Assembly (NCBI GenBank): GCA_036702865.1 | Contig: DATNQD010000063.1 | Coordinates: forward strand, 186,001 to 250,000 | Direction: 5' to 3' | From: Trichocoleus sp. | GTDB lineage: Bacteria; Cyanobacteriota; Cyanobacteriia; Elainellales; Elainellaceae | Length of the DNA stretch: 64,000 nt | Shown here: piece after piece, positions 7,622-57,456 of the stretch | How the letters are laid out: the number at the start of each line of letters is the position of its first letter | Position numbering within the stretch: the first letter of the stretch is position 1 | Made by a program: the position numbers and the translations under genes | The notes under the pieces: model-generated | Seen by the model: the letters and a program-made list of their open reading frames with translations, nothing else | Told to the model about the DNA's origin: nothing | The model's database searches: none

Positions 7622-7653
7622 AATTTCAGACCGATGATCGGTTGGTTCCTTGG

Positions 7654-8535
7654 CTAATGGCGATAGTCTGGTTCGGTCATTTCGTCTTCTAAACGATCGG
7701 GCAAAGAGAGGGCAAGTTGATAAAGCTGGCGACGGGAAAGCGGTGTTTGGTTGGCAAGCTGACGGCTGGCTTGAGAACGAGAAAGCCCTTGTTGGAGGAG
7801 ATGCTGAAGTTCGGCTTTGAGAGCAGCTTCTGACAGGATCGGTGCTGCAGTTTGACAACCTGCAATCACCAGCGTAAATTCTCCTTGCGGTTCATGGGTT
7901 TGATAGTGCGTTTCTGCTGCCTCAACGGTGCCTCGCCAAAATTGCTCATGGAGTTTGGTCAGCTCGCGCGCCAGCACGATCGATCGATCGCCACCCAAAA
8001 TTTGCTTCAGGTCTTGCAGGGTTTGCAGCAGCCGATGCGGAGCTTCATAAAAGACGATTGTACGCGGCTCAGATTGCAAAGCTTCCAGACGAGCTTGCCG
8101 CTCCTGTCCTTTGGTTGGTAAAAATCCTTCAAAGATAAAGCGATCGGTAGGTAACCCTGCGGCACTGAGACCAGTGATCACTGCACAGGCTCCCGGAATC
8201 GGCACGGTTGGAATCCCCTCACTCGCACAAGCTTTAACCAGCTCATAGCCTGGATCAGAAATGCCTGGCATCCCAGCATCCGAAACCAGAGCGATCGAAT
8301 TGCCTTGCTGCAGCCGATCGAGCAGTTCTGGTAGGCGGCTCTGGCGGTTGTGATCGTGATAGCTGATCTGCGGTGTGGTGATTTGAAAGTGATGCAGCAG
8401 TTTTCCCGTGTGGCGCGTATCTTCAGCCGCAATCCGATCGACTTTCCGTAAAACTTCGATCGCCCGGAAGGTCATATCTTCCAGGTTGCCAATCGGCGTG
8501 CCGACAATGTAAAGGGTTCCAGGCTGAATGTCCAT
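7654..8535 (-). CDS. rsmI: 16S rRNA (cytidine(1402)-2'-O)-methyltransferase
   Basis: A 293-residue tetrapyrrole-methylase-fold protein of the RsmI/YraL family, which 2'-O-methylates C1402 in the ribosomal P-site using S-adenosylmethionine. Diagnostic segments are LYIVGTPIGNLEDMTFRA at the N-terminus, AAEDTRHTGKLL, LVSDAGMPGISDPGYELV (the SAM-binding region), and the C-terminal ARELTKLHEQFWRGT. Length matches the family. It is first in a leftward unit with the lipoprotein and LapA-like genes. Confidence 0.96.
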   Translation of the reverse strand: MDIQPGTLYIVGTPIGNLEDMTFRAIEVLRKVDRIAAEDTRHTGKLLHHFQITTPQISYHDHNRQSRLPELLDRLQQGNSIALVSDAGMPGISDPGYELVKACASEGIPTVPIPGACAVITGLSAAGLPTDRFIFEGFLPTKGQERQARLEALQSEPRTIVFYEAPHRLLQTLQDLKQILGGDRSIVLARELTKLHEQFWRGTVEAAETHYQTHEPQGEFTLVIAGCQTAAPILSEAALKAELQHLLQQGLSRSQASRQLANQTPLSRRQLYQLALSLPDRLEDEMTEPDYRH

Positions 8536-8693
8536 ATCTGCATCTTATAGCAGCTGATAGGGGTTCGGGGACAGGGAGCCAGAAGCAAATCGTTTGTCTA
8601 GTTCAGCATTTTGCTCGATCGCGTGGTCTGAACCTGAGTGACGATCACCACAGAGCTGCCTCGTTAAGGCATTGCTTCTCTCCGTGATTCTAA

Positions 8694-8709
8694 CGTGATA
8701 AAAATCACA
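8694..8709 (+). promoter_or_regulatory. CRP/SyCRP1-like operator
   Basis: CGTGA-TAAAAA-TCACA matches the CRP consensus TGTGA-N6-TCACA at 9 of 10 positions. An extra CGTGAT half-site sits 11 bp upstream (8683-8688). A possible -10 hexamer TATAAA is at 8737-8742, which would place the operator centre about 47 bp before a transcription start near 8749. Cyanobacteria have cAMP receptor proteins (SyCRP1) that use this consensus. Control of the downstream sugar transferase is inference. Confidence 0.5.
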
Positions 8710-8883
8710 AAAGCTGGCGATACTGAAATAGATAAGTATAAAAAACAACATCCTAGACAGAGAAATACGGTGCTTTGTTCCAGAGCTTCTCAGCTTATTG
8801 AAGTCTCCGTGAAGACTGAACTTAATTGATTAGTTCCTTAAAGCCGCTGTCCATACTCATTGACGTAAGGCAGTGTGAATTAG

Positions 8884-8899
8884 TTTGTCGAGTGACAAA
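8884..8899. promoter_or_regulatory. Perfect 6-bp inverted repeat in the sugar transferase leader
   Basis: TTTGTC-GAGT-GACAAA is a perfect inverted repeat 57 bp upstream of the sugar transferase ATG. It could be an operator or a small hairpin in the leader RNA. There is no T-run after it, so it is not an intrinsic terminator. Confidence 0.35.
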
Positions 8900-8955
8900 T
8901 AGCTGAGCGTCGCCTTACTGTCTCGCCAAGATGACTTCCTCCGTTGCATCCCTCC

Positions 8956-9645
8956 ATGATCAGCACACCTAAAACATCTTCTTCGGTATTATCTACCCCT
9001 CTAGCTTTTCCGTTTCAGGTTCACACATCATCCTATGTTCATCCTGCGGCTATCAGTCCAACGAAACGGCTAATTGATATTGGGGGGGCGCTGGTTGGTT
9101 TACTGCTCACGGCGCTCCTATTTCTGCCGATCGCGCTTGCTATCTACATCAGTGATCCGGGTCCGATTCTCTACAGCCAGGTTCGCTGTGGCTTCCGAGG
9201 ACAGCAGTTCCGCATCTGGAAATTTCGCTCCATGGTCGTTAATGCAGAGCATCTGAAGCATCAGGTGCAAAACCAGGCAAAAGGGCATATCTTCAAGAAC
9301 GATCGCGATCCACGCATTACCAGAGCCGGTCACTTTCTCCGCCGCACTAGCCTGGACGAACTGCCGCAGTTCTGGAATGTTCTGATGGGGGAGATGAGCT
9401 TGGTTGGAACGCGCCCCCCTACACCTGATGAGGTTAGCCACTATACACGGCGGCATTGGAAAAGACTCGAAGTCAAACCCGGTATTACTGGAGAATGGCA
9501 AGCCAACGGTCGCTCTACTGTCTCCAGTTTCGAGAAGATTGTGGCAATGGATCTGCGCTATCAGAAACGATGGTCGATCGCCTACGATCTAAAACTTATT
9601 CTTAAAACGGTTTATGTTGTTCTCTGCCGCAAAGGGGCTTGTTGA
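8956..9645 (+). CDS. Undecaprenyl-phosphate sugar phosphotransferase (bacterial sugar transferase family)
   Basis: About 229 residues from the ATG at 8956; an in-frame TTG lies at 8944. It initiates exopolysaccharide or glycan repeat synthesis by moving a sugar-1-phosphate onto undecaprenyl phosphate at the inner membrane. Seen are the leading [12 protein letters not shown], one re-entrant hydrophobic segment, FRIWKFRSM, the conserved [26 protein letters not shown] block with the catalytic Asp-Glu, and [10 protein letters not shown]. It lacks the extra N-terminal helices of WbaP/WcaJ, so it is the short monotopic type. It is followed by a strong terminator, implying a single-gene unit. The sugar substrate cannot be inferred. 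Confidence 0.93.
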
Positions 9646-43981: not shown

Positions 43982-44486
43982 TCTTGCTTTCCTATAAACT
44001 GAGACAACTACTTTTTAATTTGAGCTTTTAAACGATTCTTCTGTTATAGAACCTTGACCTATAAATTTAAACCTTCATAGGGGTTATGCCGATCGGCGGG
44101 TATGTGCGATCGGTTTGGAACAGTTGTTTGGAGAGCAGATGAAATTATGTTAAATTTGCTCCTCAGAATCCTTGTTTTGCTGCGGTGTTTGCACAAGTTT
44201 TTGTATTGAGGTTGTGCATTGTCTTACCCCTTAAATTCCCCAATTCTAGAGAGCTTTGAATCTTGAAATCATTTATTTCGTAGAACAAAATGTTTGTGGG
44301 ACGAAATATTTACCCTGATTTGGACAGGTGGAGCCACTCATCCCACAAAAGACTCCAGAGATTTTGGGAGATCAATTAGATTAGATGCGATAGGCAAGTC
44401 AGGATGCTCATAACTTTGCCAGCGTTGGGGGTAGCAACCTCGAATGAGATCTGCCTATTTTTGGGGTAACAAATTTGCCAGACCGA
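43982..44486. other. 505-bp intergenic region
   Basis: No gene is supported. The region is AT-rich; TTTGTGGGA (44293-44301) and TCCCACAAA (44341-44349) form a 9-bp inverted repeat with a 39-nt centre. It separates the small gene at 43.7 kb from the end of hisB. Confidence 0.4.
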
Positions 44487-45125
44487 TTAAATCACTCCCT
44501 TCGAGCTAGGAATAACATTTGCCCGACGCGGATCAACCTCGATCGCCATCCGTACTGCTCTGGCAAAGGCTTTAAAGGTTGCCTCAATAATGTGATGCGA
44601 GTTAATGCCATCGAGTTGGCGAATATGCAGCGTCATTTGCGAGTGATTAACTACTGCAACAAAAAATTCGCGTACTAGTTGTGTATCGTAAGTTCCGACC
44701 CGTTCTGTAGGGATTTGCAAGCCATAGCTAAGATGTGGACGACCAGAAAAATCAAGCGATACCTGGACAAGCGCCTCGTCTAGGGGTGCAATGAAATGAC
44801 CGAAGCGAACAATCCCTTTTCGATCGCTCAATGCCTTGTGAAGTGCTTGACCCAGCGTGATCCCCACGTCTTCATTCGTGTGGTGATCATCAATTTCAAT
44901 ATCGCCAGTTGCTTGAATGTCCAGATCAACCAGTCCATGCGACGAAATTTGATGCAGCATGTGATCGAGAAATGGAACTCCAGTCTTGACGTTGCACTGC
45001 CCTGAGCCATCCAAATTGAGGCTAACCTGCACATCTGTTTCACCCGTGACGCGCCGTACAGTAGCCGTCCGAGCCGGAAATTCCAGATCCAAAGAAGCGG
45101 GAGCGATCGAATTACGAGTCTGCAT
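44487..45125 (-). CDS. hisB: Imidazoleglycerol-phosphate dehydratase
   Basis: A 212-residue histidine-biosynthesis enzyme using a di-manganese site. Seen: [30 protein letters not shown], the mid-part [11 protein letters not shown], and [20 protein letters not shown], whose His/Glu residues are the metal ligands. Monofunctional form, as usual in cyanobacteria. Confidence 0.97.
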
Positions 45126-45355
45126 GAACCACCTGAGCCATCAACAATCGTGTTTTAACCATTATGTCGCGATGTCGCGTCTGGTTTCATTGCTGAAGCG
45201 GTGTTTTGGTGTCGCGTCTCTGATCACAAAAAATAATCTAGACTGGCTGTGAAAGCCATCAAAAAAGCAATAATTGGGAACAATAGCCTGAATAAACGAA
45301 ACAAATCAGGGTGCTTGAATCAGACGAATTGTGTAATTCAAGCAACTTTACGTCA

Positions 45356-46612
45356 ATGAGTACTGACAATTTCTATGCAGCACTGCCAGCGATCGATAAC
45401 TTTCTAGCTGCAACCAACTTTCAAAACTTCGCACCTGTGCCAGACGATTGGTACATTGTCATCACGGATATTGTCAATTCGACTCAGGCAATTGAGCAAG
45501 GCAAGTATAAAGAAGTTAATTTTTTAGGGGCTTGCTCCATTACGGCTGTTTTGAATGCCGCAGACAAGCTCGAAATCCCTTATATCTTTGGGGGAGATGG
45601 CGCATCAATCCTCATTCCGCCAATCCTTTGGGTTCAAACCAGGCAGGTCTTGTTAGCAACCCGACGCTTAGCCAGGACTCAGTTTCATTTGGATCTCCGA
45701 GTTGGCATCGTTCCTGTCTCGGTTGTTGCTGCAGCCAACCATGAAGTTAGAGTTGCCAAATGCCAAATTTCAGCAAACTATCATCAAGCATTTTTTTCAG
45801 GTGGCGGTATTGATTTTGCAACTAATTTAATTAAAAATCCACAGACTTCTTCTCTCTATCAAATGGATGCAGAAAATATTGATAGAAATTTTGATAAAGC
45901 TGATTTCTCTGGTTTGGAATGCCGCTGGCAAGCGATTCCGAGTCTCTATGGAGAAACGGTCAGCTTACTGATTTTGGCAATGGCTCATCAGGCTGAAGCA
46001 AATACAGCAATTTATCGAGAAGCGATCGAGAAAATTCGAGCAATTTATGGTGAAGATGAAGACTGGCATCCAGTTGTTGAACGCAATCTCAAACTTACTT
46101 TCAAAACAAAAGAATTACTCGCTGAAACTAAAATTCGAGCAAAATCAAGCGGCTGGTTTGACCAACAGCGCTACTTGCTGCAAATCAAACTGGAAAACGT
46201 CCTAGGCTCAATGTTCATGCGGTTTAAACCTACGATCGGACAAATGAACTGGGGACTCTACAAAAAAATTGTAATTGCAGCCACCGACTATAAAAAATTT
46301 GACGGAACACTACGCTTTATCATCTCAGGAACCGCACCCCAACGAGAAGAATTAACAGACTACTTAGAAGAACGATATCAGCAAGGCAAGCTGGTCTATG
46401 GGCTTCATGTGTCCGATCGTGCCCTCATGACCTGTTTAGTGTTTGAGCGGCATGGAAACCAGGTGCATTTTGTCGATGGCGCAGATGGCGGCTATACTCT
46501 CGCTGCCAAAGTCCTCAAAGCAAAAATGAAGCGCAAAGCGATCAATTGGAAAACCTATCTCAAACTGGCAAAGCTTCGCCCATTTCCCTCACCTGAAAGG
46601 CTCCAAAAATAA
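45356..46612 (+). CDS. DUF3095 family protein (cyclase-like)
   Basis: 418 residues from the ATG at 45356. The N-terminal half resembles DUF3095, related in fold to adenylate/guanylate cyclases: WYIVITDIVNSTQAIEQGKYKEVN and IFGGDGASILIPP parallel the metal-binding aspartates of class III cyclases (DIVNST, GGDG). No PAS or HAMP sensor domain is attached. A cyclic-nucleotide or nucleotide-handling role is possible but unproven. The gene is divergent from hisB. Confidence 0.85.
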   Translation: MSTDNFYAALPAIDNFLAATNFQNFAPVPDDWYIVITDIVNSTQAIEQGKYKEVNFLGACSITAVLNAADKLEIPYIFGGDGASILIPPILWVQTRQVLLATRRLARTQFHLDLRVGIVPVSVVAAANHEVRVAKCQISANYHQAFFSGGGIDFATNLIKNPQTSSLYQMDAENIDRNFDKADFSGLECRWQAIPSLYGETVSLLILAMAHQAEANTAIYREAIEKIRAIYGEDEDWHPVVERNLKLTFKTKELLAETKIRAKSSGWFDQQRYLLQIKLENVLGSMFMRFKPTIGQMNWGLYKKIVIAATDYKKFDGTLRFIISGTAPQREELTDYLEERYQQGKLVYGLHVSDRALMTCLVFERHGNQVHFVDGADGGYTLAAKVLKAKMKRKAINWKTYLKLAKLRPFPSPERLQK

Positions 46613-46701
46613 CATCCTTGCCTGAATTTGCAGCCTGATTTCTGCCTCTGGCTACTTACTACAGAACCGTGAGTATTGCAGGTCTCCCTCCTTATAGTCC
46701 T

Positions 46702-46707
46702 TATAAT
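46702..46707 (+). promoter_or_regulatory. Possible -10 element before prfC
   Basis: A consensus TATAAT lies 26 bp before the prfC ATG. A TTGCAG 20 bp upstream is spaced wider than ideal for a -35, so only the -10 is suggested. Confidence 0.3.
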
Positions 46708-46733
46708 GGAATTTGGGTTTACAGAGCTTCACG

Positions 46734-48380
46734 ATGTCCACAGAACTTCAGCCAGAACTTCAACTTCAAACAGAATTAGCAGCAGCCGTCGAAAAACGCC
46801 GAAACTTCGCCATCATCTCTCACCCTGATGCCGGGAAAACAACCCTCACTGAAAAGCTTCTGTTGTACGGGGGTGCAATTCATGAGGCGGGTGCAGTTAA
46901 AGCAAGACGGGCACAGCGTCATGCCACTTCCGATTGGATGGCAATGGAGCAACAGCGGGGAATTTCGATTACCTCCACCGTGCTGCAATTTCAATATGAA
47001 GGTTGCTGGATCAATCTGCTGGATACGCCCGGACACCAAGATTTCAGTGAAGACACATATCGTACTTTGGCAGCAGCAGACAATGCCGTGATGCTGGAAG
47101 ACGCAGCTAAAGGTCTGGAACCCCAAACGCGCAAATTGTTTGAAGTTTGTCGGATGCGCGGTATTCCCATCTTCACCTTTTTCAACAAGCTCGATCGCCC
47201 CGGCCGTGACCCATTTGAACTAATGGACGAAATCGAGAAGGAGCTGGGTTTGCAGACTTATGCCGTGAACTGGCCAATCGGGATGGGCGATCGGTTTAAG
47301 GGCGTGTTTGATCGGCGAGAGAAAAAGATTCACCTGTTTGAGCGATCGGCGCATGGGAGCCGTGAGGCAGTCGATACGATCGTTGAGTTGGGTGATCCTC
47401 GGATTGCAGAACTGTTGGAACCGGATCTGTACTACAAACTCAAAGAAGATCTCGAAATGCTGGATATGGCAGGAACCGAGTTTGACCTGGAAGCAGTTCA
47501 TGCAGGACAACTCACCCCGGTTTTCTTTGGTAGTGCCATGACCAACTTCGGCGTTGAGCCGTTCCTCGATGCTTTCCTCGACTATGCGCTGAAGCCTGCT
47601 CCGCGTCGCAGTACTTTGGGCGAAGTGCAACCTACTGATCCAGAGTTTTCGGGCTTTGTCTTCAAGCTGCAAGCCAACATGGACCCAAGACATCGCGATC
47701 GGATTGCGTTTGTTCGTGTTTGCTCTGGCAAATTTGAGAAAGATATGGTGGTAAGCCATGCACGATCGGGCAAAACCGTTCGGCTATCGCACCCTCAAAA
47801 ACTGTTTGGGCAGGATCGAGAATCACTGGCAGAAGCATATCCAGGGGATGTGATTGGACTGAATAACCCTGGTGTATTTGCGATCGGCGACACGATTTAC
47901 AGCGGTCAACGGCTGGAGTTTGATGGCATTCCGATGTTCTCACCTGAACTCTTTGCTTACCTGAAGAACCCTAACCCCTCAAAGTTCAAGCAGTTTCGCA
48001 AGGGCGTTAATGAGTTGCGCGAAGAGGGAGCCGTGCAGATCATGTATTCAGTTGATGAGGCAAAGCGCGATCCCATCCTTGCTGCTGTTGGGCAACTTCA
48101 GTTTGAGGTCGTTCAGTTCCGCCTCCAAAATGAATATGGCGTTGAGACGTTGCTCGAACCCTTGCCTTTCAGCGTCGCCCGGTGGGTTGAAGCGGGTTGG
48201 GAAGTTTTGAATCAGGTTGGTCGTCTGTTTAATACTGCGACGATTAAGGACAGTTGGGGGCGTCCGGTACTGCTGTTCCGCAACGAATGGAACTGCCAGC
48301 AGGTAGAAGGCGAACATCCTGAACTGAAGCTGAGAAAAGTTGCGCCTGTTGTCTCTGGACAAGAGCCAGAAGCAATCTAG
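46734..48380 (+). CDS. prfC: Peptide chain release factor 3
   Basis: A 548-residue translational GTPase that recycles RF1/RF2 from terminated ribosomes. Seen: G1 [21 protein letters not shown], switch I/II regions [11 protein letters not shown] and [15 protein letters not shown]4 [18 protein letters not shown], and C-terminal RF3-specific regions ([37 protein letters not shown]). Start at the ATG 46734; an earlier TTG in frame at 46713 is unlikely. Confidence 0.97.
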
Positions 48381-48497
48381 GTATGACCCTTGAACTTTTT
48401 ACCCCAACCTTCTTCGATCTGCCATAAGCCTTTGGCTAGATTTTCAACTGAAGAAGAACTCTTGTAGCGTTATAAAGCACTCTTTTTGAAACGCACT

Positions 48498-49085
48498 ATG
48501 CCTTTTGAGCCATCTGGCAACCTGGAAATGCTTGCATTGAGCCAGAGCGATGCAGATCTATTCCGGGCGTTGAAGGCAGGTCAAATTTCTGCTTTAGGGA
48601 CGCTCTACGATCGCCATGCTGCCCTTGTGTATGGTTTGGCACTCAAAGTGCTGGGTGTGTCTCCCGAAGCAGAAGACCTGACTCAAGATATTTTTTTGAA
48701 TCTCGCCAATTCTTCTTTTGATCCAAATCGCGGCTCCTTAAGAACGTTTTTGGCAATTCTGACTCGCTCACGGGCAATCGATCGAATTCGATCGCGCAGT
48801 TCAGCAGCATCAGTTTTGCAACGGATCACGGTTAGTCCCAGTGAAGCGATTGACCCGAATTCACCAGTTGAACATGTCTTTCAGGCGGAACAATCTGCGG
48901 AAGTTCGGGCAGCCCTTGCCCAATTGTCTGATAACCAACAGCAAATTCTCAAGATGGCTTATTACGATGGTCTTAGCCAATCTGAAATCGCCACTCAGTT
49001 AGCCCTGCCGTTAGGAACTGTGAAAGCTAGAGCCAGACGTGGGCTACTGAAATTAAGAGAAACACTTGCAAACTATCTCCAATAA
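48498..49085 (+). CDS. ECF-type RNA polymerase sigma factor
   Basis: A 195-residue sigma-70-family ECF factor from the ATG at 48498. Region 2 shows LYDRHAALVYGLALKVLG, AEDLTQDIFLNLAN and TRSRAIDRIRSR (DNA melting and -10 recognition); region 4 is QQILKMAYYDGLSQSEIATQLALPLGTVKARARRGLLKLR, a helix-turn-helix for -35 recognition. It is followed after 83 bp by an RskA-like anti-sigma gene, the usual pairing. Target promoters unknown. Confidence 0.93.
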   Translation: MPFEPSGNLEMLALSQSDADLFRALKAGQISALGTLYDRHAALVYGLALKVLGVSPEAEDLTQDIFLNLANSSFDPNRGSLRTFLAILTRSRAIDRIRSRSSAASVLQRITVSPSEAIDPNSPVEHVFQAEQSAEVRAALAQLSDNQQQILKMAYYDGLSQSEIATQLALPLGTVKARARRGLLKLRETLANYLQ

Positions 49086-49168
49086 GATGCTTTCAAGTTC
49101 GATCGCCAGCAGTTCAGACAACCCTTAACTCCATCCTTAACTCCATTGTGAAACCTGTGGCTTAAGTA

Positions 49169-49948
49169 ATGCCTTCAGAACCACCTTCAGAACCACCTTC
49201 CGAAATGCCTCTACAATCGCAGCTACTGATAGCAGGGTACATCTTGGGTGATCTTGACCCAGAGGAAGCCGCAGAATTGGAGCAGCTTTTGAGTCATAAT
49301 TCGGCAATGACAGCCGAAGCTGAACAAATGCAAAAGGCGCTCGAACTTGCCTATGGCGTTTCAGAAGTTCGCCCTCCTGACCATTTGCGATCGATGATTC
49401 TCAATGCGGCTCAGCCTCAATCTGCCGCTCGTCCTGCCGTCACGCCGAGAGTGAACCAAAATCTGGTCACCCGGAGGAGCTGGTGGAATCGATCGATCGC
49501 TGCCGCTGCTGCAATGGTGATTTTGGCACTCGGCATCAACAACTATCGCCTCTGGCAAACCCTTCAAGCCAGCCGCACGCCTCAACCGCTACAGCCTGTA
49601 ACCTATTCGCTACAGAGCACCGGAGCCAATGCCGCAACTGCTGCCGTCCAGGTAAACCCTAATACCCTGGAAGCGGAGCTAACGGTGCAAAATTTGTCGC
49701 CGCTGCCCCCCGGAAAAACTTATGCTTTGTGGACTATCTTAAAGAAAAATGCTCCCTTCACGGCTGATGCGAAAGGGGCTGTGCTCACAGAAGCCTTTAA
49801 TGTCGATGATCGAGGCACCGTTTCCCGTACGATCGCTGTTCCTGATATCTATCGTGCTCAAGAGTGGATCGCCAGAGTTGCAGTGACAGTCGAAGACGCA
49901 AACGCACCCCAGAAACATCAGGGCAAACCCATTCTGATCACTCAATGA
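49169..49948 (+). CDS. RskA-like anti-sigma factor
   Basis: A 259-residue membrane anti-sigma protein. The N-terminal ~85 residues (LLIAGYILGDLDPEEAAELEQLLSHN) form the sigma-binding region typical of anti-sigma-K proteins (no zinc HxxxCxxC motif). A single membrane helix follows (about 110-126, WWNRSIAAAAAMVILALGIN), and the C-terminus has the RskA domain (NLSPLPPGKTYALWTIL, later EEDAN-like strands). It probably holds the upstream ECF sigma factor at the membrane. A short P-S-E-P repeat begins the protein. Confidence 0.9.
   Translation: MPSEPPSEPPSEMPLQSQLLIAGYILGDLDPEEAAELEQLLSHNSAMTAEAEQMQKALELAYGVSEVRPPDHLRSMILNAAQPQSAARPAVTPRVNQNLVTRRSWWNRSIAAAAAMVILALGINNYRLWQTLQASRTPQPLQPVTYSLQSTGANAATAAVQVNPNTLEAELTVQNLSPLPPGKTYALWTILKKNAPFTADAKGAVLTEAFNVDDRGTVSRTIAVPDIYRAQEWIARVAVTVEDANAPQKHQGKPILITQ
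49172..49207 (+). repeat. 12-bp tandem repeat at the anti-sigma gene start
   Basis: CCTTCAGAACCA is repeated twice exactly (49172-49183 and 49184-49195) with a diverged third copy (49196-49207), encoding PSEPPSEPPSEM. Slippage here would add or remove four residues at a time while keeping frame. The ATG at 49208-like positions inside the repeat leaves the exact start uncertain. Confidence 0.7.
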
Positions 49949-50033
49949 GTCTGATTGCTCCTCGCTAATATTCTGGGATGAGGCGTTTTAGGATAAAAGG
50001 AGCGTGGCGCCATGTCAAACATCTGCCAGACTC

Positions 50034-52946
50034 ATGATTTTGATTCAGGTTTTGCTCATTCTCATCGCTTGTCTTATTCTGGGCGGACTGCCGCTGATTC
50101 AGTGGATTACCTGGGGTTTAACGGGGCATCGGCTCGATCGCCTTGGCACAAAGAATATTAGCGTCTCTGCTGCCTTCTACCATGGGGGCAAACTGGCTGG
50201 AATTCTGGCGGTTTGCTCGGAGGCGTTCAAGGGTATTGCTGCTGTGCTGCTGATGCGGCATTTTTTTCCTCATCAACCTGCACTAGAGGTTACGGCGTTA
50301 ATTGCGCTGGTGATTGGGCGCTTCTGGTTTGGTAAAGGAGCAGGCACAACGAATGTAACCTGGGGCTTTATCGTTCACGATCCGATTACCTCTGGTTTAG
50401 TCTTTCTGACGAGCGGGATTAGCTTTACCCTGTTTCGAGAACGTAAAACGGGCAAGCTGGCGGTGCTGGCGCTCCTGCTGCTCATAACAATTCTGCGACA
50501 TTCCCAAAATCAGGGGCGAATTGTTGCAACCGCTCTCCTCTGTTTGCTCATTGCCTGGATTTATCAACAGATTCCAGATGATTTAGAGTTATCTCCAGAT
50601 GATGCTCAACGAGATTCTCAGCCCATGTTTCGTTTTTTTCGCGGCGATCGTGCCCTCCTCTCGCTCGATCAATCTCTCAAAGTCGAACAGGTTGGACAAA
50701 AAGCCGCCACGCTATCGCAGCTTAAACGCTGGGGCTATCCGGTGCCGATGGGTTGGGTGCTGCCCCCCGGTGATGATCCGGCTCCCTTAATTGAATCGCT
50801 GTCTCCCAGTCCAGAGCATCCTTTGATTGTGCGCTCCTCTGCCATTGGTGAAGACTCCGAAACGGCATCTGCTGCCGGACAGTATGAGTCGATCGCCCAT
50901 CTCACCAGTCAGCCTGCCTTAGAGCAAGCGGTTTTGCGCTGTCAGGCATCCTACAATTTACCGATCGCCATGCAATATCGAGCCGACCGGGGCATTGCCG
51001 AAACGGGCATGGCAGTTTTGGTTCAAGCTCAGGTTCAGGGAGTGTTTTCTGGGGTTGCCTTCAGCCGCGATCCGATCGCTCGTCAGGGTGAATCTGTGGT
51101 AATTGAAGCCCTTCCGGGCGGTGCATCGCGGGTCGTATCAGGACAGGTGACGCCAGAACGATATCGGGTCTGGTTGCAGGACAGGGATTTTGGCTCAGTG
51201 CAGATGGATGATCCGCAAAGCTGGGTTCTGCCGGATGACTTGAAGCTGGACATGAGCGGCGAAGGGGATGTGCCGCCCCGGTTGATTCAACAGGTTGCTT
51301 ATTTAGCAAGGCATCTAGAAACTCGCTATCACGGCATCCCTCAAGATATTGAGTGGAGCTATGACGGGCAGCAGCTCTGGCTGTTGCAATCCCGCCCCAT
51401 CACAACACTCTTGCCAATCTGGACGCGCAAAATTGCGGCAGAAGTGATTCCGGGCTTCATTCGTCCGCTCACCTGGTCAATTAATCAACCTCTGACCTGT
51501 GGCGTTTGGGGCGATTTGTTTACGTTGGTATTGGGCGATCGAGCTGAAGGGCTAGACTTCAACGAAACTGCAACCTTACACAACTCTGCGGCTTACTTTA
51601 ATGCCTCCCTGTTGGGGCAAACCTTTCGCCGCATGGGGCTACCTGCCGAAAGCCTGGAATTTTTGACCCGTGGCGCAAAATTTAGCAAACCGCCGCTCCG
51701 TTCGACTGTCCAAAACCTCCCCGGACTGTTGCGCTTGCTGCAACGAGAACTGCGCCTCGAAACCGACTTCAACAGAGATGCCCAACAGTTCTTCCATCCC
51801 AGCTTAGCCAAACTGACCCACGAATCCCCCAATCGTCTCTCTCCGGAAGCCCTGCTCGATCGAATTCACCATCTCCTCGATCTGCTGCGTCGCGCCACTT
51901 ATTACAGCATTCTTGCCCCCCTCAGTGCAGCTCTGCGGCAATCTCTCGCAAAGGTCAATCCAGCCAATCTGGATAATAGCCAAACTCCCGAAGTCGCATC
52001 GCTTCGATCGCTTCAAGCTTTAGCCGCTCGTACCCGTCATCTGGCGATTTCTAGCAATCATGCTAGTAGTGAAGCACTCCTCGAAGCTCTGCAATCAACC
52101 CCGGAGGGTCAAACCATTTTGCAGGAATTCGATCGCCTGCTCGAGCAATATGGTTATCTCAGTGAAGTTGGTACAGACATTGCCATCCCCACCTGGAGGG
52201 AAGAACCGCGTCCGGTGTGGGAATTGTTTGCGGGGTTCGTTATGAATCCTGTGGCAGGGCAAGCAGGGGAGATACAGGGGCAGAGGAGTGTAAAAAAAGG
52301 AGGAGTACAGCGGCGAGTTGATTTGAAAGGCAGAGTCACAGCGGTTTATAGTCGGCTGCTGGCAGAACTGCGGTGGAGTTTTGTGGCGTTAGAGCAGCAA
52401 TGGATAGCGTCAGGATTGTTGCGCCAGTCAGGAGACATTTTCTTTCTAACGTTTGCAGAAATTGAACGATCGATCCAGACTCAACCCCCTTCGTTCGATC
52501 GTCGCATCGCGGAGCGTCAAACCCAGCTAGAGTGCGATCGCTCAGTCACGCCGCCCCTGCTTGTGTATGGCAACGATCCGCCGCAACTCCTGAACTTTGA
52601 CCAATGGAGCGATCGACCTGCATCCCAGCAGCTTCAGGGAATTGGCGGTAGTGCGGGACGGGCTGAAGGGAAAATTCTGGTGTTAACGGATTGGCGCAAT
52701 GTGCCGGAAATCGATCGATCAATTATTCTGGTTGTGCCTTATACCGATTCAGGCTGGGCACCTCTGCTTGCCAGGGCGGGTGGCTTAATTGCCGAAACTG
52801 GAGGGCAGCTTTCTCATGGGGCGATCGTGGCGAGAGAGTACGGTATTCCGGCTGTAATGGATATTACCCACGCCACACAGCGGTTTCGCAATGGGCAACA
52901 AGTCCGAATCGATGGACAGCAAGGACTTGTCGAGCTTTTGGAGTAG
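50034..52946 (+). CDS. Fusion: PlsY-like membrane domain plus PEP-utilising (PPDK/RPH-like) phosphotransferase
   Basis: About 970 residues from the ATG at 50034 (an in-frame GTG at 50004 gives 980). Residues ~1-190 are membrane helices with degenerate PlsY-like motifs (GTKNISVSAAFYHGGKLAG, GKGAGTTNVTWG, LRHSQNQGR), the fold of acyl-phosphate:glycerol-3-phosphate acyltransferases. From ~205 an ATP-grasp domain like PPDK_N follows (LIVRSSAIGEDSETASAAGQY near 265, IEWSYDGQQLWLLQSRPI). A long central region has no clear domain. The end is the PEP-utiliser swivelling domain with the phospho-His in GGQLSHGAIVARE (about 927). There is no PEP/pyruvate TIM barrel, as in rifampin phosphotransferase. 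The sigma/anti-sigma genes precede it on the same strand. Activity of either half is inferred. Confidence 0.85.
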   Translation: MILIQVLLILIACLILGGLPLIQWITWGLTGHRLDRLGTKNISVSAAFYHGGKLAGILAVCSEAFKGIAAVLLMRHFFPHQPALEVTALIALVIGRFWFGKGAGTTNVTWGFIVHDPITSGLVFLTSGISFTLFRERKTGKLAVLALLLLITILRHSQNQGRIVATALLCLLIAWIYQQIPDDLELSPDDAQRDSQPMFRFFRGDRALLSLDQSLKVEQVGQKAATLSQLKRWGYPVPMGWVLPPGDDPAPLIESLSPSPEHPLIVRSSAIGEDSETASAAGQYESIAHLTSQPALEQAVLRCQASYNLPIAMQYRADRGIAETGMAVLVQAQVQGVFSGVAFSRDPIARQGESVVIEALPGGASRVVSGQVTPERYRVWLQDRDFGSVQMDDPQSWVLPDDLKLDMSGEGDVPPRLIQQVAYLARHLETRYHGIPQDIEWSYDGQQLWLLQSRPITTLLPIWTRKIAAEVIPGFIRPLTWSINQPLTCGVWGDLFTLVLGDRAEGLDFNETATLHNSAAYFNASLLGQTFRRMGLPAESLEFLTRGAKFSKPPLRSTVQNLPGLLRLLQRELRLETDFNRDAQQFFHPSLAKLTHESPNRLSPEALLDRIHHLLDLLRRATYYSILAPLSAALRQSLAKVNPANLDNSQTPEVASLRSLQALAARTRHLAISSNHASSEALLEALQSTPEGQTILQEFDRLLEQYGYLSEVGTDIAIPTWREEPRPVWELFAGFVMNPVAGQAGEIQGQRSVKKGGVQRRVDLKGRVTAVYSRLLAELRWSFVALEQQWIASGLLRQSGDIFFLTFAEIERSIQTQPPSFDRRIAERQTQLECDRSVTPPLLVYGNDPPQLLNFDQWSDRPASQQLQGIGGSAGRAEGKILVLTDWRNVPEIDRSIILVVPYTDSGWAPLLARAGGLIAETGGQLSHGAIVAREYGIPAVMDITHATQRFRNGQQVRIDGQQGLVELLE

Positions 52947-53079
52947 CACATCTGCCAATTGAAATAATCTTTTAAGCCAAAAGTAACACTTCATTGCAAA
53001 TTGCAAGGACTGATTACCGCAATATGTTACGTTCAATATCGTTGACTTATGACCGAGTTCTTAAGAGAGGCAGGACACC

Positions 53080-53280
53080 TTGGTTACGAACTTCAAGTCG
53101 GTTTCCAGCACTACGATTCGTGAAGACTTTAGCGAATATGTCGCTCACCTCCAGCTTCACATGGCTTTACAAGCAAGGAACCTTGTTCCAACGCTGACTC
53201 ATACAGAAGATAGCCGCGAGCAATTACTCCACCAAACGCAAGCGGAATTTGAAAAGTTTGTTTCGCGCCAGAGCCATTAG
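53080..53280 (+). CDS. Possible small protein, unknown
   Basis: A 66-residue frame with a TTG start preceded by GAGAGG. Sequence (TTIREDFSEYVAHLQLHMAL, HTEDSREQLLHQTQAEFEKF) looks helical and protein-like, but start and reality are uncertain. Confidence 0.4.
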   Translation: MVTNFKSVSSTTIREDFSEYVAHLQLHMALQARNLVPTLTHTEDSREQLLHQTQAEFEKFVSRQSH

Positions 53281-53455
53281 GGACGCGATCGATAATAAGA
53301 TCAATTTAAGTTCAACCTTGGAGTCGGGGCTTTGCTGCTCTGGCTCTTTTGTTTCGAAAATCGGCCTTACGAGTCGATGGGTGGCAGGTTTAAGGGGCTA
53401 GGAGTCAAGTGATTCACTACCCATCCTTTCCCCTTCCCCTCCGTTCTTCAATTTC

Positions 53456-53821
53456 TTAAGCGATGCTGGCAACTGGAGCTGGCTCATACAAATACTCAAA
53501 CCAGTTTCCATCTGGGTCGCGTCCATAGAAAGAAGCAGTTCCATCTCGATGCTCATGGATTTCTGTGAGATGAACCCCTTCTGCTTTGAGCCGATCGTAT
53601 TCCGTTTCAACCTCAGCACGATCGTCAAAAATAAACCCAAAGTGCGGGCCTGCCTGCTTATATTGGGGGCTGAGTAATGCGAGTCCGTCTTCTCCTGCTT
53701 TGAGATAAGCCCAGTCAGCGTCTTTCCAGACCAGATCCATCCCTAGTTCTTGGTAGAACGTGGCAGCCCGTTCGAGGTTTTCAACACAGATAGCAACGTG
53801 ACCGATGCGCTTTAGTTTCAT
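53456..53821 (-). CDS. VOC (glyoxalase/bleomycin-resistance) family protein
   Basis: 121 residues from the ATG at 53821, where the domain begins (MKLKRIGHVAICVENLERAA). Typical VOC strands and helices: TFYQELGMDLVWKDADWAYLKAGEDGLALLSP, then GTASFYGRDPDGNWFEYLYEP, with a His and Glu at usual metal-ligand positions (H9-like in GHVAI; E in FEYLYEP). Enzyme activity or substrate unknown. Confidence 0.88.
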   Translation of the reverse strand: MKLKRIGHVAICVENLERAATFYQELGMDLVWKDADWAYLKAGEDGLALLSPQYKQAGPHFGFIFDDRAEVETEYDRLKAEGVHLTEIHEHRDGTASFYGRDPDGNWFEYLYEPAPVASIA

Positions 53822-54029
53822 AGCTCTTGAACCCACCTGAATCTTACTAATCATCTCATCCTCATTGTAAAACAGGGATTTTGGGGTCAATGGATGAGTC
53901 ATTTTTTTGAGCAAGCGATCGGGTAAGCAATTGGGTAGGGGGCTGGGCAGGTCTGTATCAAATTCAACGATTCATCGGGTCGAGATTCACGTTAATCTGA
54001 GGAACAGAAGCAATCTTGTGATAGAACCT

Positions 54030-54491
54030 ATGATTCGTGCTAAAAGCGCTTTTTTAATGGGAAGGCGAGCTGTGATGGCGACGATCGTCGCTTGTTTGTT
54101 CTGGATCAGTAGCACTGTAGTTGCGCCTGCGGCATTTGCCCTCATCCAAATTAAATTGAGCGATGTCACCTATCACGAATGTCCGGCAGATCTAGCTGAA
54201 GGAGCGATTACGTCGGGTGGAACAAGTATGCGTGCAAGTTGCTATATCGTAACGGGCAAGGCGCAAAACACGTCTGGTAAGGCGATTCACAACGCAGATA
54301 TTTTTGGTCGCATCTATGACGCTAACGACAATCCAGTGATGCAGAATCGGACGCGCATCGGCTCGATCGAGGAAGTTCCAGTCGGCACAAGCACTTTTGA
54401 ATTTCGGATTTCTGTTCCGGCGAATCAGCCTACCCCTCTGAAATTAAAGCAGTTTAAGGCAACTGGGTTTGCAGGAACTGTGCGCCGCTAG
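54030..54491 (+). CDS. Predicted secreted protein, unknown function
   Basis: About 153 residues from the ATG at 54030; later ATGs at 54057 and 54075 are possible. A signal peptide is present (ATIVACLFWISSTVVAPAAFA). The mature part (LIQIKLSDVTYHECPADLAEG, ASCYIVTGKAQNTSGKAIHNADIFGRIYDANDNPV, FRISVPANQP) is beta-rich and resembles extracytoplasmic FxLYD-type beta-sandwich domains. Two cysteines could pair. No catalytic motif. Confidence 0.72.
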   Translation: MIRAKSAFLMGRRAVMATIVACLFWISSTVVAPAAFALIQIKLSDVTYHECPADLAEGAITSGGTSMRASCYIVTGKAQNTSGKAIHNADIFGRIYDANDNPVMQNRTRIGSIEEVPVGTSTFEFRISVPANQPTPLKLKQFKATGFAGTVRR

Positions 54492-54602
54492 TCGTTTAGC
54501 TTACTCCTAAGTTGTTTATCGATCGTGTGACGCGCTTTCGATTAGCCACTACAATGAGCCTGCAAATGCTAATAGCACTTTTGTACTCGCCACCGTGCAA
54601 CG

Positions 54603-55364
54603 ATGTCCCCAAGTACTACTGAACGTCCGTCAAGCCCCCCATCCCGACATTCTACTTCTACGTCTCAGGCTTCCGGTTCTGAGCGATCGGTTGCTCCCAT
54701 CGTGGTGCAGCTTGATCAGGTCACAAAGCTCTACTCCAATGGCTGTCAGGCGCTTGCAGAGGTCAATCTCCAAATCCACAAAGGTGATTTCCTGTTCGTG
54801 ACCGGACCTTCAGGCTCAGGCAAGTCTACATTTCTCAAGCTGCTTTACGGCGAGGAGCGTCCGACCCAGGGCGAAATTGTGGTGAACAATATGCGTCTTG
54901 CTGGTTTGCGGGGAAATGACCTCTCAAAGCTGCGGCGACAAGTGGGCGTAGTGTTTCAAGACTATAAGTTGATTCCGCGCCGTACCGTTGCTGAGAATGT
55001 GGCATTTGTGCTGTGGGCGCAAGGTTTTACACGCAAAGAAATTCATCGCCGCCTTCTGCCAACGTTGAAGATGGTGGGCTTGCAAGAGAAGGCAGACTGT
55101 TTTCCTGATCAGCTTTCGGGCGGAGAGCAGCAGCGTGTCAGCATTGCCAGAGCCATTGTCGGTACTCCCCCCATTCTGCTAGCAGACGAACCAACCGGGA
55201 ATCTTGACCCTGACAACTCCTGGCAGGTAATTAAAATCCTCAAAAAACTAAATTCCGTTGGTGTAACGGTGGTTGTGACGACCCACGATGAACAGCTTGT
55301 GCGGCTATCGAATCATCCGGTCGTGCAAATCCGAAACGGTCGGCTCTACCGAACCAGGCTCTAA
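54603..55364 (+). CDS. ftsE: Cell-division ATP-binding protein FtsE
   Basis: A 253-residue ABC ATPase of the FtsE class that, with FtsX, regulates peptidoglycan hydrolysis at division. Seen: Walker A GPSGSGKSTFLKLLYGEERP, Q-loop VVFQDYKLIPRRTVAENVAF, signature LSGGEQQRVSIARA, Walker B ILLADEPTGNLDPDNS and TTHDEQLV. An N-terminal Ser/Pro/Thr-rich tail of ~36 residues precedes the domain. No ftsX is adjacent. The last 60 bp overlap the convergent gene. Confidence 0.92.
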   Translation: MSPSTTERPSSPPSRHSTSTSQASGSERSVAPIVVQLDQVTKLYSNGCQALAEVNLQIHKGDFLFVTGPSGSGKSTFLKLLYGEERPTQGEIVVNNMRLAGLRGNDLSKLRRQVGVVFQDYKLIPRRTVAENVAFVLWAQGFTRKEIHRRLLPTLKMVGLQEKADCFPDQLSGGEQQRVSIARAIVGTPPILLADEPTGNLDPDNSWQVIKILKKLNSVGVTVVVTTHDEQLVRLSNHPVVQIRNGRLYRTRL

Positions 55365-55829
55365 GTTTGGCTTCAGGTCGTTTTTGTTGAGGCTGCTGTC
55401 TGCTGAATCAGACCTTCCCTTTAGCAGTCGATCGCGGATCTGAGACAGTTGAGCGTGAGAATCAACAGGCGATCGTGGCGGAGGTAATTCGGTATCGGGC
55501 CAGAGGGGCATATCAAAACAAGGGCAATCAGCACTGTCTCGTACCCCCAACGTCAACATTGGCACAGGCATAGAGCAACGGGCACAGGCAGCAACATCCC
55601 AATTCTGTGAAAGCAATTGCTCGATCGTCTGAATGGTTCCCTCTAAATAGCAATCCTGCCATTCCCCGCTGATAATGCGCTGCCAGTATGTTTCAAACTC
55701 AGAGCTGTATCGATCGCCCTGAATCACAGGTTGAGGCAGCACCTTAAGCTGACCTTGCTTCACAACGAGTCGCTTACCCAACTGAAACCAGTAGGCGAGG
55801 TATTGTTTGACTTGGGCTGGGGATGCCAT
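55305..55829 (-). CDS. Cyanobacterial protein of unknown function
   Basis: A 174-residue protein starting MASPAQVKQYLAYWFQLGKRLVV with a cysteine pair motif in ACARCSMPVPMLTLG and DCPCFDMPLWP (possible metal site) and a hydrophilic, charged tail. The tail lies antisense over the ftsE 3' end (60 bp). No domain recognised. Confidence 0.72.
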   Translation of the reverse strand: MASPAQVKQYLAYWFQLGKRLVVKQGQLKVLPQPVIQGDRYSSEFETYWQRIISGEWQDCYLEGTIQTIEQLLSQNWDVAACARCSMPVPMLTLGVRDSADCPCFDMPLWPDTELPPPRSPVDSHAQLSQIRDRLLKGRSDSADSSLNKNDLKPNLEPGSVEPTVSDLHDRMIR

Positions 55830-56003
55830 AGTTTTGGGTTGAAGTGGACGAACAGTGATTTACTGACTCAATTTAATAATCAAATTCAATAAGTAGAAGT
55901 AAATACTTTCTCCATCCTATCGAGTGCCATGCCCCTTCATGAACCGAGGATCTAGAGCAAAGATTAAGCTTGCGCAAAAGGAAAGTCGCAACCGACAAAA
56001 GGC

Positions 56004-56555
56004 TTAGCTTTCAATTTGCTGTCCCAGTTGGCTTAAATTGAGGGCATACCCGCCTGTCACCAGATAAACTGCATCAGCGATCGTTCCAATGCGACGCGTC
56101 AGGTTTCCTAACCGATCCCGGAAGAGCCGTCCAATCGGATAAGCAGGTACCACACCCCAACCCGTTTCTTCTGCCACAAAAATAATCTGCGCCTGGGTTT
56201 GATGGAGGCTTTCCATCAGTTCAGTGAGGGTGATTTGCCAGGTGTCATCCTCTTGCTCAAGCACATTTGCTAGCCAGGTTCCCAGAGAGTCAATCAGCAG
56301 ACATTCAGAATCCGATGCAGCAAGAATGGTGGCAGAGAGGGCGATCGGGACAGCCAGCGTTTTCCAGTTTGAAGGACGACGACGTTGATGTTGAGCAATC
56401 CGGGCTTGCCATTCCAGGTCACTAGGATCGGTTTGAGCTGTGGCAACGTAAACGACCGATCGAGCCGATCGCATTGCCAGTGTTTCAGCCCATTCACTTT
56501 TACCAGAGCGGGCAGGTCCGGTTACTAGCACAATTGGTCTGACAGAGGATTTCAC
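56004..56555 (-). CDS. cobU: Adenosylcobinamide kinase / adenosylcobinamide-phosphate guanylyltransferase
   Basis: About 183 residues from a GTG at 56555, which gives the usual CobU length (an ATG at 56648 would add 31). Seen: P-loop VTGPARSGKSEWAETLA, VYVATAQTDPSD, LLIDSLGTWLANVLE, IIFVAEETGWGVVPAYPIGRLFRDRLG and a C-terminal VYLVTGGYALNL. It activates cobinamide in late cobalamin assembly. No other cob genes adjacent. Confidence 0.93.
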   Translation of the reverse strand: MKSSVRPIVLVTGPARSGKSEWAETLAMRSARSVVYVATAQTDPSDLEWQARIAQHQRRRPSNWKTLAVPIALSATILAASDSECLLIDSLGTWLANVLEQEDDTWQITLTELMESLHQTQAQIIFVAEETGWGVVPAYPIGRLFRDRLGNLTRRIGTIADAVYLVTGGYALNLSQLGQQIES

Positions 56556-56685
56556 AAAAGATGTCGTCCTGAAGCGAAATAGTGGTCTTACCCCATTGAA
56601 CCAGTTAGAATAGCCAAAACTTGGGATAAAACAGGCGGCTCTACCCATTCTTCTTGACTCTCTGCTCCTGCTAAGGACGGCAGCT

Positions 56686-57456
56686 ATGAAACCTGGAAAA
56701 CCCGAATTGAAACGGATTGAGGCAACGCTCGATCAACTGAATTTGCTGCCTGATACTGGCGCAACAAGCAACACGGAAGGAGCGGTTCCCTCAGAGCCAG
56801 GAAAACCAAAGGCGACCGATCGTCCTCCTGCTCAAGCAGTGCAATCCTTTCCGCTGCCGCAGCCTAAAAAAACTGTGACAACTGTACAACCTTTTCCTGT
56901 GCAGGAAGACAGCCCCTCAACGCCGCTGCCAAAATTTAAGACTCCTAGTTTCAGCAGCCATCGTCATGCTGTGAATCCAAATCTGGCAGTTACTTTGCTG
57001 CATCAAATTGAGGCGATCGTTGTCCAGTGGCAACTCGAACTCGAACAGGTTGCCCTGCAAATTCATGCCCTCTATTTGGAAGGTCCGATTGTAGATGGTT
57101 GGCTCGAATCACAGCCCTATGATGCTTACCAGCCGATCCAATCCACTGGCTCCTCCAAACTGCGCCATGCTGAAATTGAGCATTTAATGGAATACGTCGA
57201 AGCGATCTGCAACACTCCGCATCCTCCCTTCACTGACAATCAACCGCGCACCGGATATCGCCTTTGTGGGCTAGATGCCGACGGGCAACTCTGGTCACGT
57301 GCCTGCCCCCCTCAGCAGGTTCCCTATGTCAGTCTGGCAATTGCTCGCTATCAAAAACTCCGCATTCTCTTAGGCAAAAAACAGTCTCTTGAAACTCGCC
57401 TCAATCAACTCATTCAGAACTTGACGATGGTACAGGGGCGGATGCAGGAAGAGTGA
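56686..57456 (+). CDS. Cyanobacterial protein of unknown function
   Basis: A 256-residue protein with a proline/lysine-rich N-terminal half and a C-terminal helical domain (NLAVTLLHQIEAIVVQWQLELEQVALQIHALYLEG, later CPPQQVPYVSLAIARYQKLRILLGKKQSLETRLNQLIQNL). The C-terminus likely forms a coiled coil. Looks cytoplasmic. No known domain. Confidence 0.7.
   Translation: MKPGKPELKRIEATLDQLNLLPDTGATSNTEGAVPSEPGKPKATDRPPAQAVQSFPLPQPKKTVTTVQPFPVQEDSPSTPLPKFKTPSFSSHRHAVNPNLAVTLLHQIEAIVVQWQLELEQVALQIHALYLEGPIVDGWLESQPYDAYQPIQSTGSSKLRHAEIEHLMEYVEAICNTPHPPFTDNQPRTGYRLCGLDADGQLWSRACPPQQVPYVSLAIARYQKLRILLGKKQSLETRLNQLIQNLTMVQGRMQEE

What the first reader, a model, noticed from the sequence alone, without database searches (positions are those of the whole stretch)
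48498..52946. ECF sigma / anti-sigma pair directly upstream of a PlsY-phosphotransferase fusion enzyme
Seen: three same-strand genes with gaps of 83 and 85 bp (using the ATG at 50034). The third combines a PlsY-like membrane domain with an ATP-grasp plus swivelling phospho-His domain but no PEP/pyruvate barrel, like rifampin phosphotransferases. Known: an RskA partner usually controls the neighbouring ECF factor. Inference: a membrane-stress-responsive unit in which the enzyme modifies a lipid-like or small hydrophobic compound. This is the best candidate here for an undescribed system.
Basis: partly seen in the sequence, partly recalled or inferred. Interest (0 to 1): 0.62.

Follow-up and report, generated by a model that had tools for sequence, protein, structure and literature searches.

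The report
Cyanobacterial membrane-tethered dikinase; neighbours coincidental
The gene next to a stress-regulator pair makes a membrane-anchored relative of an antibiotic-phosphorylating enzyme that is widespread in cyanobacteria and appears undescribed, but the regulator genes were found beside it only in this strain, so the proposed three-gene unit is probably a coincidence.

Summary
The three genes are real and at the stated places. The proposed unit is not supported: of 82 other fusion genes with at least 1.3 kb upstream (67 with at least 4 kb), none has the sigma or anti-sigma gene beside it; one has a weak partial sigma match. The sigma/anti-sigma pair is conserved on its own, with a different downstream gene in each relative laid out. 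The third gene is the real finding: an intact ATP-grasp / rifampin-phosphotransferase-like substrate domain / phospho-His swivel enzyme fused to a PlsY fold. It occurs in 62 of 89 class-level genomes sampled and in 0 of 105 others of the phylum (hand count). The PlsY part keeps the fold, but Arg45, His92, His177 and Asn180 are replaced and a new signature is largely fixed. RPH's acceptor-site Arg-Glu appears to be lost. Best reading: a membrane-tethered ATP-dependent small-molecule dikinase, probably acting on a membrane-associated hydroxyl compound, with a repurposed PlsY module. The substrate is unknown. New variant of a known kind.

The parts
48498..49085 (+). ECF sigma-70 factor (NF009172/PRK12519 subfamily)
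   Evidence: Pfam Sigma70_r2 E 1.5e-15, Sigma70_r4 E 1.2e-15; NF009172 261.7 bits against a cut-off of 222
49169..49948 (+). RskA-type anti-sigma factor, partner of the sigma gene
   Evidence: Pfam RskA_C E 3.5e-11; directly follows the sigma gene in 12 of the 13 relatives that I chose to lay out (14 loci; in G194 the two are on different contigs)
50034..52946 (+). Fusion enzyme, 970 aa: PlsY fold, ATP-grasp, RPH-like substrate domain, phospho-His swivel domain
50076..50564 (+). PlsY-fold membrane domain (residues 15-177), canonical substrate-binding residues mostly replaced
   Evidence: Pfam PF02660 E 2.6e-14; VIA Z 18.8 to 5xj7, 3.0 A over 180 residues; residue comparison
50145..50189 (+). 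Family signature GT[GK]N-x-SVSAAFYHGG (residues 38-52) in place of PlsY motif 1
   Evidence: each position except 42 has its commonest residue in 42 to 53 of 54 distinct homologues
50652..51413 (+). ATP-grasp domain (about residues 207-460); R267, S269, R345, P347, E358, E440, R454 in 54 of 54
51417..52637 (+). Central substrate domain with the fold of the RPH rifampin-binding domain (residues 462-868 modelled)
   Evidence: model m2542690086de, pLDDT 89.2, pTM 0.89; Z 21.2 to 5hv2, 4.8 A over 339
52326..52331 (+). Lys765-Gly766, at the place of RPH's catalytic Arg-Glu if read without gaps
   Evidence: K 50 of 54, G 43 of 54; placed by my ungapped reading of the sequences; gapped alignments place it otherwise
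52629..52943 (+). Phospho-His swivel domain; catalytic His928 codon at 52815-52817
   Evidence: PEP-utilizers E 9.3e-22; His in 51 of 54, Gln in 3

Best explanation
The fusion gene encodes a membrane-tethered small-molecule dikinase of the rifampin-phosphotransferase (RPH) superfamily. ATP bound in the ATP-grasp domain phosphorylates His928 of the swivel domain (AMP and Pi leave), and the swivel domain then carries the phosphate to an acceptor held in the RPH-like central domain. The N-terminal domain is a PlsY fold that has lost most of the G3P pocket and been re-used, to hold the enzyme at the membrane and probably to present or receive an amphiphilic, membrane-partitioned acceptor such as an alcohol, quinol-like or lipid compound. 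It is a vertically inherited gene of the cyanobacterial class, without constant neighbours. The ECF sigma / RskA pair upstream is a separate conserved two-gene regulator that most likely lies next to it in this strain by rearrangement. Shown: domains, folds, kept ATP-grasp and His residues, spread, lack of conserved neighbours, replacement of PlsY residues. Inferred: the dikinase reaction (from homology) and membrane location (from the fold). Guess: the nature of the acceptor and the role of the PlsY fold.
For: Domains. Profile match to RPH chains in two stretches covering the ATP-grasp/central and swivel parts, E 4.6e-88. Full-length model pLDDT 89.9, pTM 0.78, best fold match RPH over 205-969. 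Central domain alone: six RPH entries at Z 16.8-21.2, best other fold Z 8.4. Seven ATP-grasp residues in 54 of 54, K223 in 52; swivel His in 51 of 54. PlsY fold Z 18.5-18.8, with changed pocket residues. Order not conserved: 0 of 82. Sigma/anti-sigma pair conserved alone. No neighbour family in more than 14 of 83 fusion loci. A canonical-scoring PlsY is present in 40 of 40 genomes, own included. Fusion and canonical PlsY distances agree in 16 genomes, Spearman 0.78, 0 of 1000 permutations as high. RPH mechanism: PMC4844700 passages.
Against: RPH's Arg666-Glu667, needed for transfer to rifampin (PMC4844700), seems not to be kept: Lys-Gly by ungapped reading; MAFFT and hhalign open gaps there, and hhalign against L174 sets it against Val762-Asp763. 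So the acceptor chemistry may differ. Three of 54 distinct aligned members have Gln for the swivel His, and two have Asp for K223, so some members may be inactive. There is no substrate evidence: no conserved neighbour gene.
Confidence: 0.6

Rival explanations
1. The three genes are one transcription unit in this strain, with the ECF factor driving the enzyme in response to membrane stress.
For: Same strand, gaps of 83 and 85 bases; no terminator-like site in the second gap on the + strand.
Against: Order absent at 82 of 82 other fusion genes with at least 1.3 kb upstream; the gene after the pair differs in each of 12 relatives; no shared upstream motif was visible by eye in the alignments of 11 sigma and 12 fusion upstream regions, own included.
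Confidence: 0.12
2. The PlsY fold is only a membrane anchor; the acceptor is a soluble small molecule bound in the central domain, as in RPH.
For: Central domain has the RPH substrate-domain fold and 57 of 330 columns with one residue in at least 52 of 55 rows (which counts one protein twice).
Against: The PlsY domain has its own near-invariant residues (N41, A46, A47, F48, G52, E63, R96, N107, W110, G111, each in 50 to 54 of 54) where a mere anchor would need none.
Confidence: 0.3
3. A bifunctional enzyme: working G3P acyltransferase plus dikinase.
For: PlsY fold and Pfam match; Ser35 to Thr keeps 17% activity in aaPlsY (PMC5700162); Lys or Arg at 101, near the Lys104 loop, in 46 of 54.
Against: Arg45 is Tyr in 48 of 54 and His92 is Arg in 54 of 54; motif 3 His177/Asn180 align with Tyr and Ile. 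In aaPlsY, alanine at Arg45, Asn180 or His177 costs over 90% of activity. A separate canonical PlsY exists in 40 of 40 genomes.
Confidence: 0.04
4. An ordinary PEP synthase, as some family names would suggest.
For: NCBIfam hits named phosphoenolpyruvate synthase.
Against: Those shown are far below their cut-offs (best 248.3 bits against 945); no PEP/pyruvate barrel family matched; His domain is C-terminal and the central domain is RPH-like.
Confidence: 0.02

Closest known systems
Rifampin phosphotransferase (RPH-Lm, PDB 5FBS/5HV1-3; PMC4844700)
   Same: Order ATP-grasp, substrate domain, C-terminal swivel His; folds match over residues 205-969.
   Different: N-terminal PlsY fold added; 18-24% identity in the fold alignments; catalytic Arg-Glu pair apparently not kept; conserved by descent in much of a class.
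PlsY acyl-phosphate:G3P acyltransferase (PDB 5XJ5-9; PMC5700162)
   Same: Fold, Z 18.5-18.8; GxxN of motif 1 and a [KR]GAG loop near motif 2.
   Different: Arg45, His92, His177, Asn180 replaced; fused to a kinase.
HpeHI two-component phenolic dikinase (PMC12167813, passages)
   Same: ATP-grasp part matches HpeI structure 9goj; the paper likens HpeH to the swivel and substrate domains of RPH.
   Different: Two separate proteins; no membrane domain is mentioned in the passages I read.
Cyanobacterial SigG-SapG ECF / anti-sigma operon (PMC2758279, passages)
   Same: ECF gene followed by its regulator gene.
   Different: Whether the window's pair is SigG-SapG was not tested.

Membership tests
RPH-type small-molecule dikinase superfamily | ATP-grasp, substrate domain and C-terminal phospho-His swivel domain in that order | tested here: met
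RPH-type small-molecule dikinase superfamily | Conserved swivel histidine | tested here: met
   His928 in the window protein; 51 of 54 distinct homologues, Gln in L107, L115, L116
RPH-type small-molecule dikinase superfamily | Catalytic Arg-Glu and Lys in the substrate domain (kept even in a far clade, PMC4844700) | tested here: inconclusive
   No alignment puts Arg-Glu opposite Arg-Glu: ungapped reading gives Lys765-Gly766, MAFFT and hhalign open gaps. No structure-based residue map was available.
RPH-type small-molecule dikinase superfamily | Forms AMP, Pi and a phosphorylated product | not testable with these tools
   needs enzymology
Rifampin phosphotransferase proper | NCBIfam RIF_Ptrans_rph score above cut-off | tested here: not met
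   221.8 bits against 999
PlsY G3P acyltransferase | PlsY fold | tested here: met
PlsY G3P acyltransferase | G3P-binding Ser35, Arg45, Lys104, Asn180, His177; acyl-phosphate-binding His92 | tested here: not met
   Thr 48 of 54; Tyr 48; Lys/Arg nearby 46, register unsure; Ile 33 or Met 9; Tyr 42; Arg 54. Ser142 and Thr41 equivalents: not examined and Ser, respectively.
PEP synthase | PEP/pyruvate-binding barrel | tested here: not met
   no Pfam match; central domain matches RPH
Conserved sigma / anti-sigma / enzyme operon | Gene order kept in relatives | tested here: not met
   0 of 82 others

The most novel reading that the evidence does not exclude
A class-wide cyanobacterial lipid kinase of a new kind: a PlsY fold stripped of its acyltransferase pocket but keeping a glycine-rich loop like the one that binds phosphate in PlsY serves as the lipid site of a phospho-His dikinase, which would phosphorylate a membrane lipid, prenol or fatty acid (in the boldest form, making acyl phosphate from free fatty acid and ATP for the separate true PlsY).
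Probability: 0.12. Interest if true: 0.75.

Novelty: new variant of a known kind. Interest (0 to 1): 0.42.

Why it matters
The RPH-type dikinases whose acceptors are named in the passages I read act on rifampin and phenols (PMC4844700, PMC12167813). Here one is tied to a remodelled lipid-enzyme fold and kept by descent in 62 of 89 class-level genomes sampled, with none seen in 105 other genomes of the phylum (hand count). That points to an unassigned membrane reaction that matters to many oxygenic cyanobacteria; a knockout with lipid and pigment profiling would test it directly. It also shows that adjacency to a sigma pair in one genome is weak evidence of a system.

Tried and rejected
Three-gene unit: rejected by the neighbour tests. 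Conserved neighbours as a clue to substrate: none; the most frequent family, in 14 of 83 loci, looks RDD-like by eye (recalled; some of the 83 loci are one contig held twice). Shared ECF promoter motif: alignments of 11 sigma and 12 fusion upstream regions showed none by eye; sigma-70 promoter-like sites were at shuffle level, 3 found against 3.2 expected. Plasmid copies of the whole enzyme: 0 of 315 matching records cover 80%. PHROGs gave only a swivel-domain match, PADLOC none. Rfam: no match in 44000-57000. Plain PEP synthase: far below cut-offs. phmmer of the PlsY part alone against the PDB found nothing, but the profile search did (5xj5, E 0.0017). Literature: searches (15 of 34 listed) showed no title or abstract about a PlsY-dikinase fusion; these were read as listings only. 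Whether the fusion exists outside the phylum was not tested: the one genome-collection scan used patterns for close relatives and gave 24 loci, all cyanobacterial by title.
Full report
Observation. The sigma gene (48498-49085), anti-sigma gene (49169-49948) and fusion gene (50034-52946) are present on the + strand with gaps of 83 and 85 bases. Pfam names Sigma70 regions 2 and 4, RskA_C, and for the third protein G3P_acyltransf, PPDK_N and PEP-utilizers. The sigma protein passes the cut-off of the NCBIfam subfamily NF009172.

Is it a unit? I compared the three genes with relatives. In the phylum sample and in named genome contigs the fusion gene is common. I collected 93 distinct fusion genes including the window's own and one paralogue. 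Of the 92 others, 82 have at least 1.3 kb of upstream DNA and 67 at least 4 kb; none has the sigma or anti-sigma gene in the DNA held. One (L127) has a weak partial sigma match, 32% over residues 117-194. Beside the nearest relative read with long flanks (72% identical, L039, 8 kb each side) none of the seven other window genes tested was found. The sigma/anti-sigma pair is itself well kept: I laid out 14 loci of 13 relatives picked from the better hits; in 12 the two genes are adjacent, and in one (G194) they lie on different contigs. The gene after the pair differs in each of the 12. Before the pair, a family of about 200-residue proteins recurs in 4 of the 12, but not in the window. The adjacency in the window is therefore best read as a local rearrangement. 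Co-transcription in this strain alone is still possible, as no terminator-like site was found in the 85-base gap on the + strand.

What the enzyme is. A profile of the fusion proteins finds RPH structures with E 4.6e-88. The full-length model (pLDDT 89.9, pTM 0.78) matches RPH over residues 205-969 (Z 35.6 to 5hv3, with an rmsd of 21 A over 651 residues, which I put down to different placing of the mobile domains) and PlsY over residues 3-204 (Z 18.8, 3.0 A over 180). The central region modelled alone (pLDDT 89.2, pTM 0.89) matches six RPH entries at Z 16.8-21.2, the best with 4.8 A over 339 residues, while the next fold has Z 8.4 (in Foldseek only RPH entries are below E 0.001). ATP-grasp residues R267, S269, R345, P347, E358, E440 and R454 are identical in 54 of 54 distinct proteins, and K223 in 52. 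The swivel His928 is kept in 51 of 54 and is Gln in L107, L115 and L116.

Two departures from the known families. First, the PlsY part. In Aquifex PlsY, G3P is held by Ser35, Arg45, Lys104, Asn180, Ser142 and His177, and acyl phosphate by His92, Thr41 and the Lys104-Ala107 loop (PMC5700162, passages). In the fusion family the aligned residues are Thr39 (48 of 54) for Ser35, Tyr49 (48 of 54) for Arg45, Arg96 (54 of 54) for His92, Ser45 for Thr41 (44 of 54), Tyr177 (42 of 54) and Ile180 (33) or Met (9) for His177 and Asn180, and a [KR]-G-A-G-T-T-N loop near Lys104 whose register is unsure. A new block GT[GK]N-x-SVSAAFYHGG is largely fixed. Loss of the old pocket together with a new fixed set argues for a changed role and not for decay. 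A PlsY of canonical score is found in 40 of 40 genomes, own included, so the fusion does not replace it. Second, the acceptor site. RPH needs Arg666-Glu667 for the second transfer step, and a far clade of its superfamily still keeps them with a Lys (PMC4844700, passages). Two RPH-like proteins of related cyanobacteria (L177, L178) show REYPK, and one in this genome (L174) has an Arg-Glu at about the like place. Reading without gaps back from the shared D-I-F-F-L-like block, the fusions have Lys765-Gly766 there (K in 50 of 54, G in 43). MAFFT and hhalign open gaps, and hhalign against L174 places Val762-Asp763 there. In none of these does an Arg-Glu of the window protein fall on it, but the exact counterpart is not settled.

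Spread. By hand count, 62 of 89 class-level genomes have a full or nearly full fusion (12 of 12 members of family f19 lack it), and 0 of the other 105 genomes of the phylum do; the matches listed for those begin at residue 198 or later, in a list that was cut. Distances of the fusion and of canonical PlsY agree in 16 genomes (Spearman 0.78, 0 of 1000 permutations as high), as expected of vertical descent. No neighbour family occurs in more than 14 of 83 fusion loci. Plasmid records hold no full copy (0 of 315 matching). One genome (G170) has a second, 591-aa copy lacking the central domain (L103), and G036 has a 409-aa remnant-like open frame (L142).

Mechanism. From RPH and HpeHI the likely course is ATP to phospho-His with release of AMP and Pi, a swing of the His domain, and transfer to an acceptor in the central domain. 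This is inferred from homology. Membrane attachment follows from the PlsY fold, which is integral to the membrane (PMC5700162). That the acceptor is amphiphilic is a guess that rests on the re-used lipid-enzyme fold. The acceptors named in those papers carry hydroxyl groups (rifampin, phenols).

Literature. Six searches listed no paper on a PlsY-dikinase fusion. Only open-licence papers are held, so this is not proof that none exists. PMC4844700, PMC5700162, PMC12167813 and PMC2758279 were seen as passages; PMC4844700's and PMC12167813's abstracts in part.

Verdict. Observation confirmed; the three-gene system is not supported; the enzyme is an apparently undescribed, widespread cyanobacterial variant of the RPH dikinase family with a repurposed PlsY fold.

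Noticed in passing
L103 (G170), 7332-9104, - strand: Second copy, 591 aa, with PlsY fold, ATP-grasp and His domain but without the central substrate domain.
   Followed up: partly
L115 and L116 (G058, G083); L107 (G091): Family members with Gln in place of the swivel His; L115 also lacks the first PlsY motif. Possibly inactive or re-purposed.
   Followed up: partly
L142 (G036): A 409-aa open frame with a PlsY-like helical part and a piece of ATP-grasp, without the signature motifs; looks like a remnant.
   Followed up: partly
L191 and L192 (G194): The sigma and anti-sigma homologues lie on different contigs, the one of 13 relatives laid out where the pair is split.
   Followed up: no
L186, L187, L188, L190, directly before the sigma gene: A family of about 200-residue proteins with a signal-peptide-like start (by eye) stands next to the sigma gene in 4 of 12 relatives, but not in the window; a possible third member of the sigma / anti-sigma unit.
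   Followed up: partly
window 45311-46612: DUF3095 protein (Pfam E 5.7e-139) directly before a release factor 3 gene; function unknown.
   Followed up: no
L174 (G000:C76): A separate RPH-like protein of 865 aa in the same genome, without the PlsY part.
   Followed up: partly
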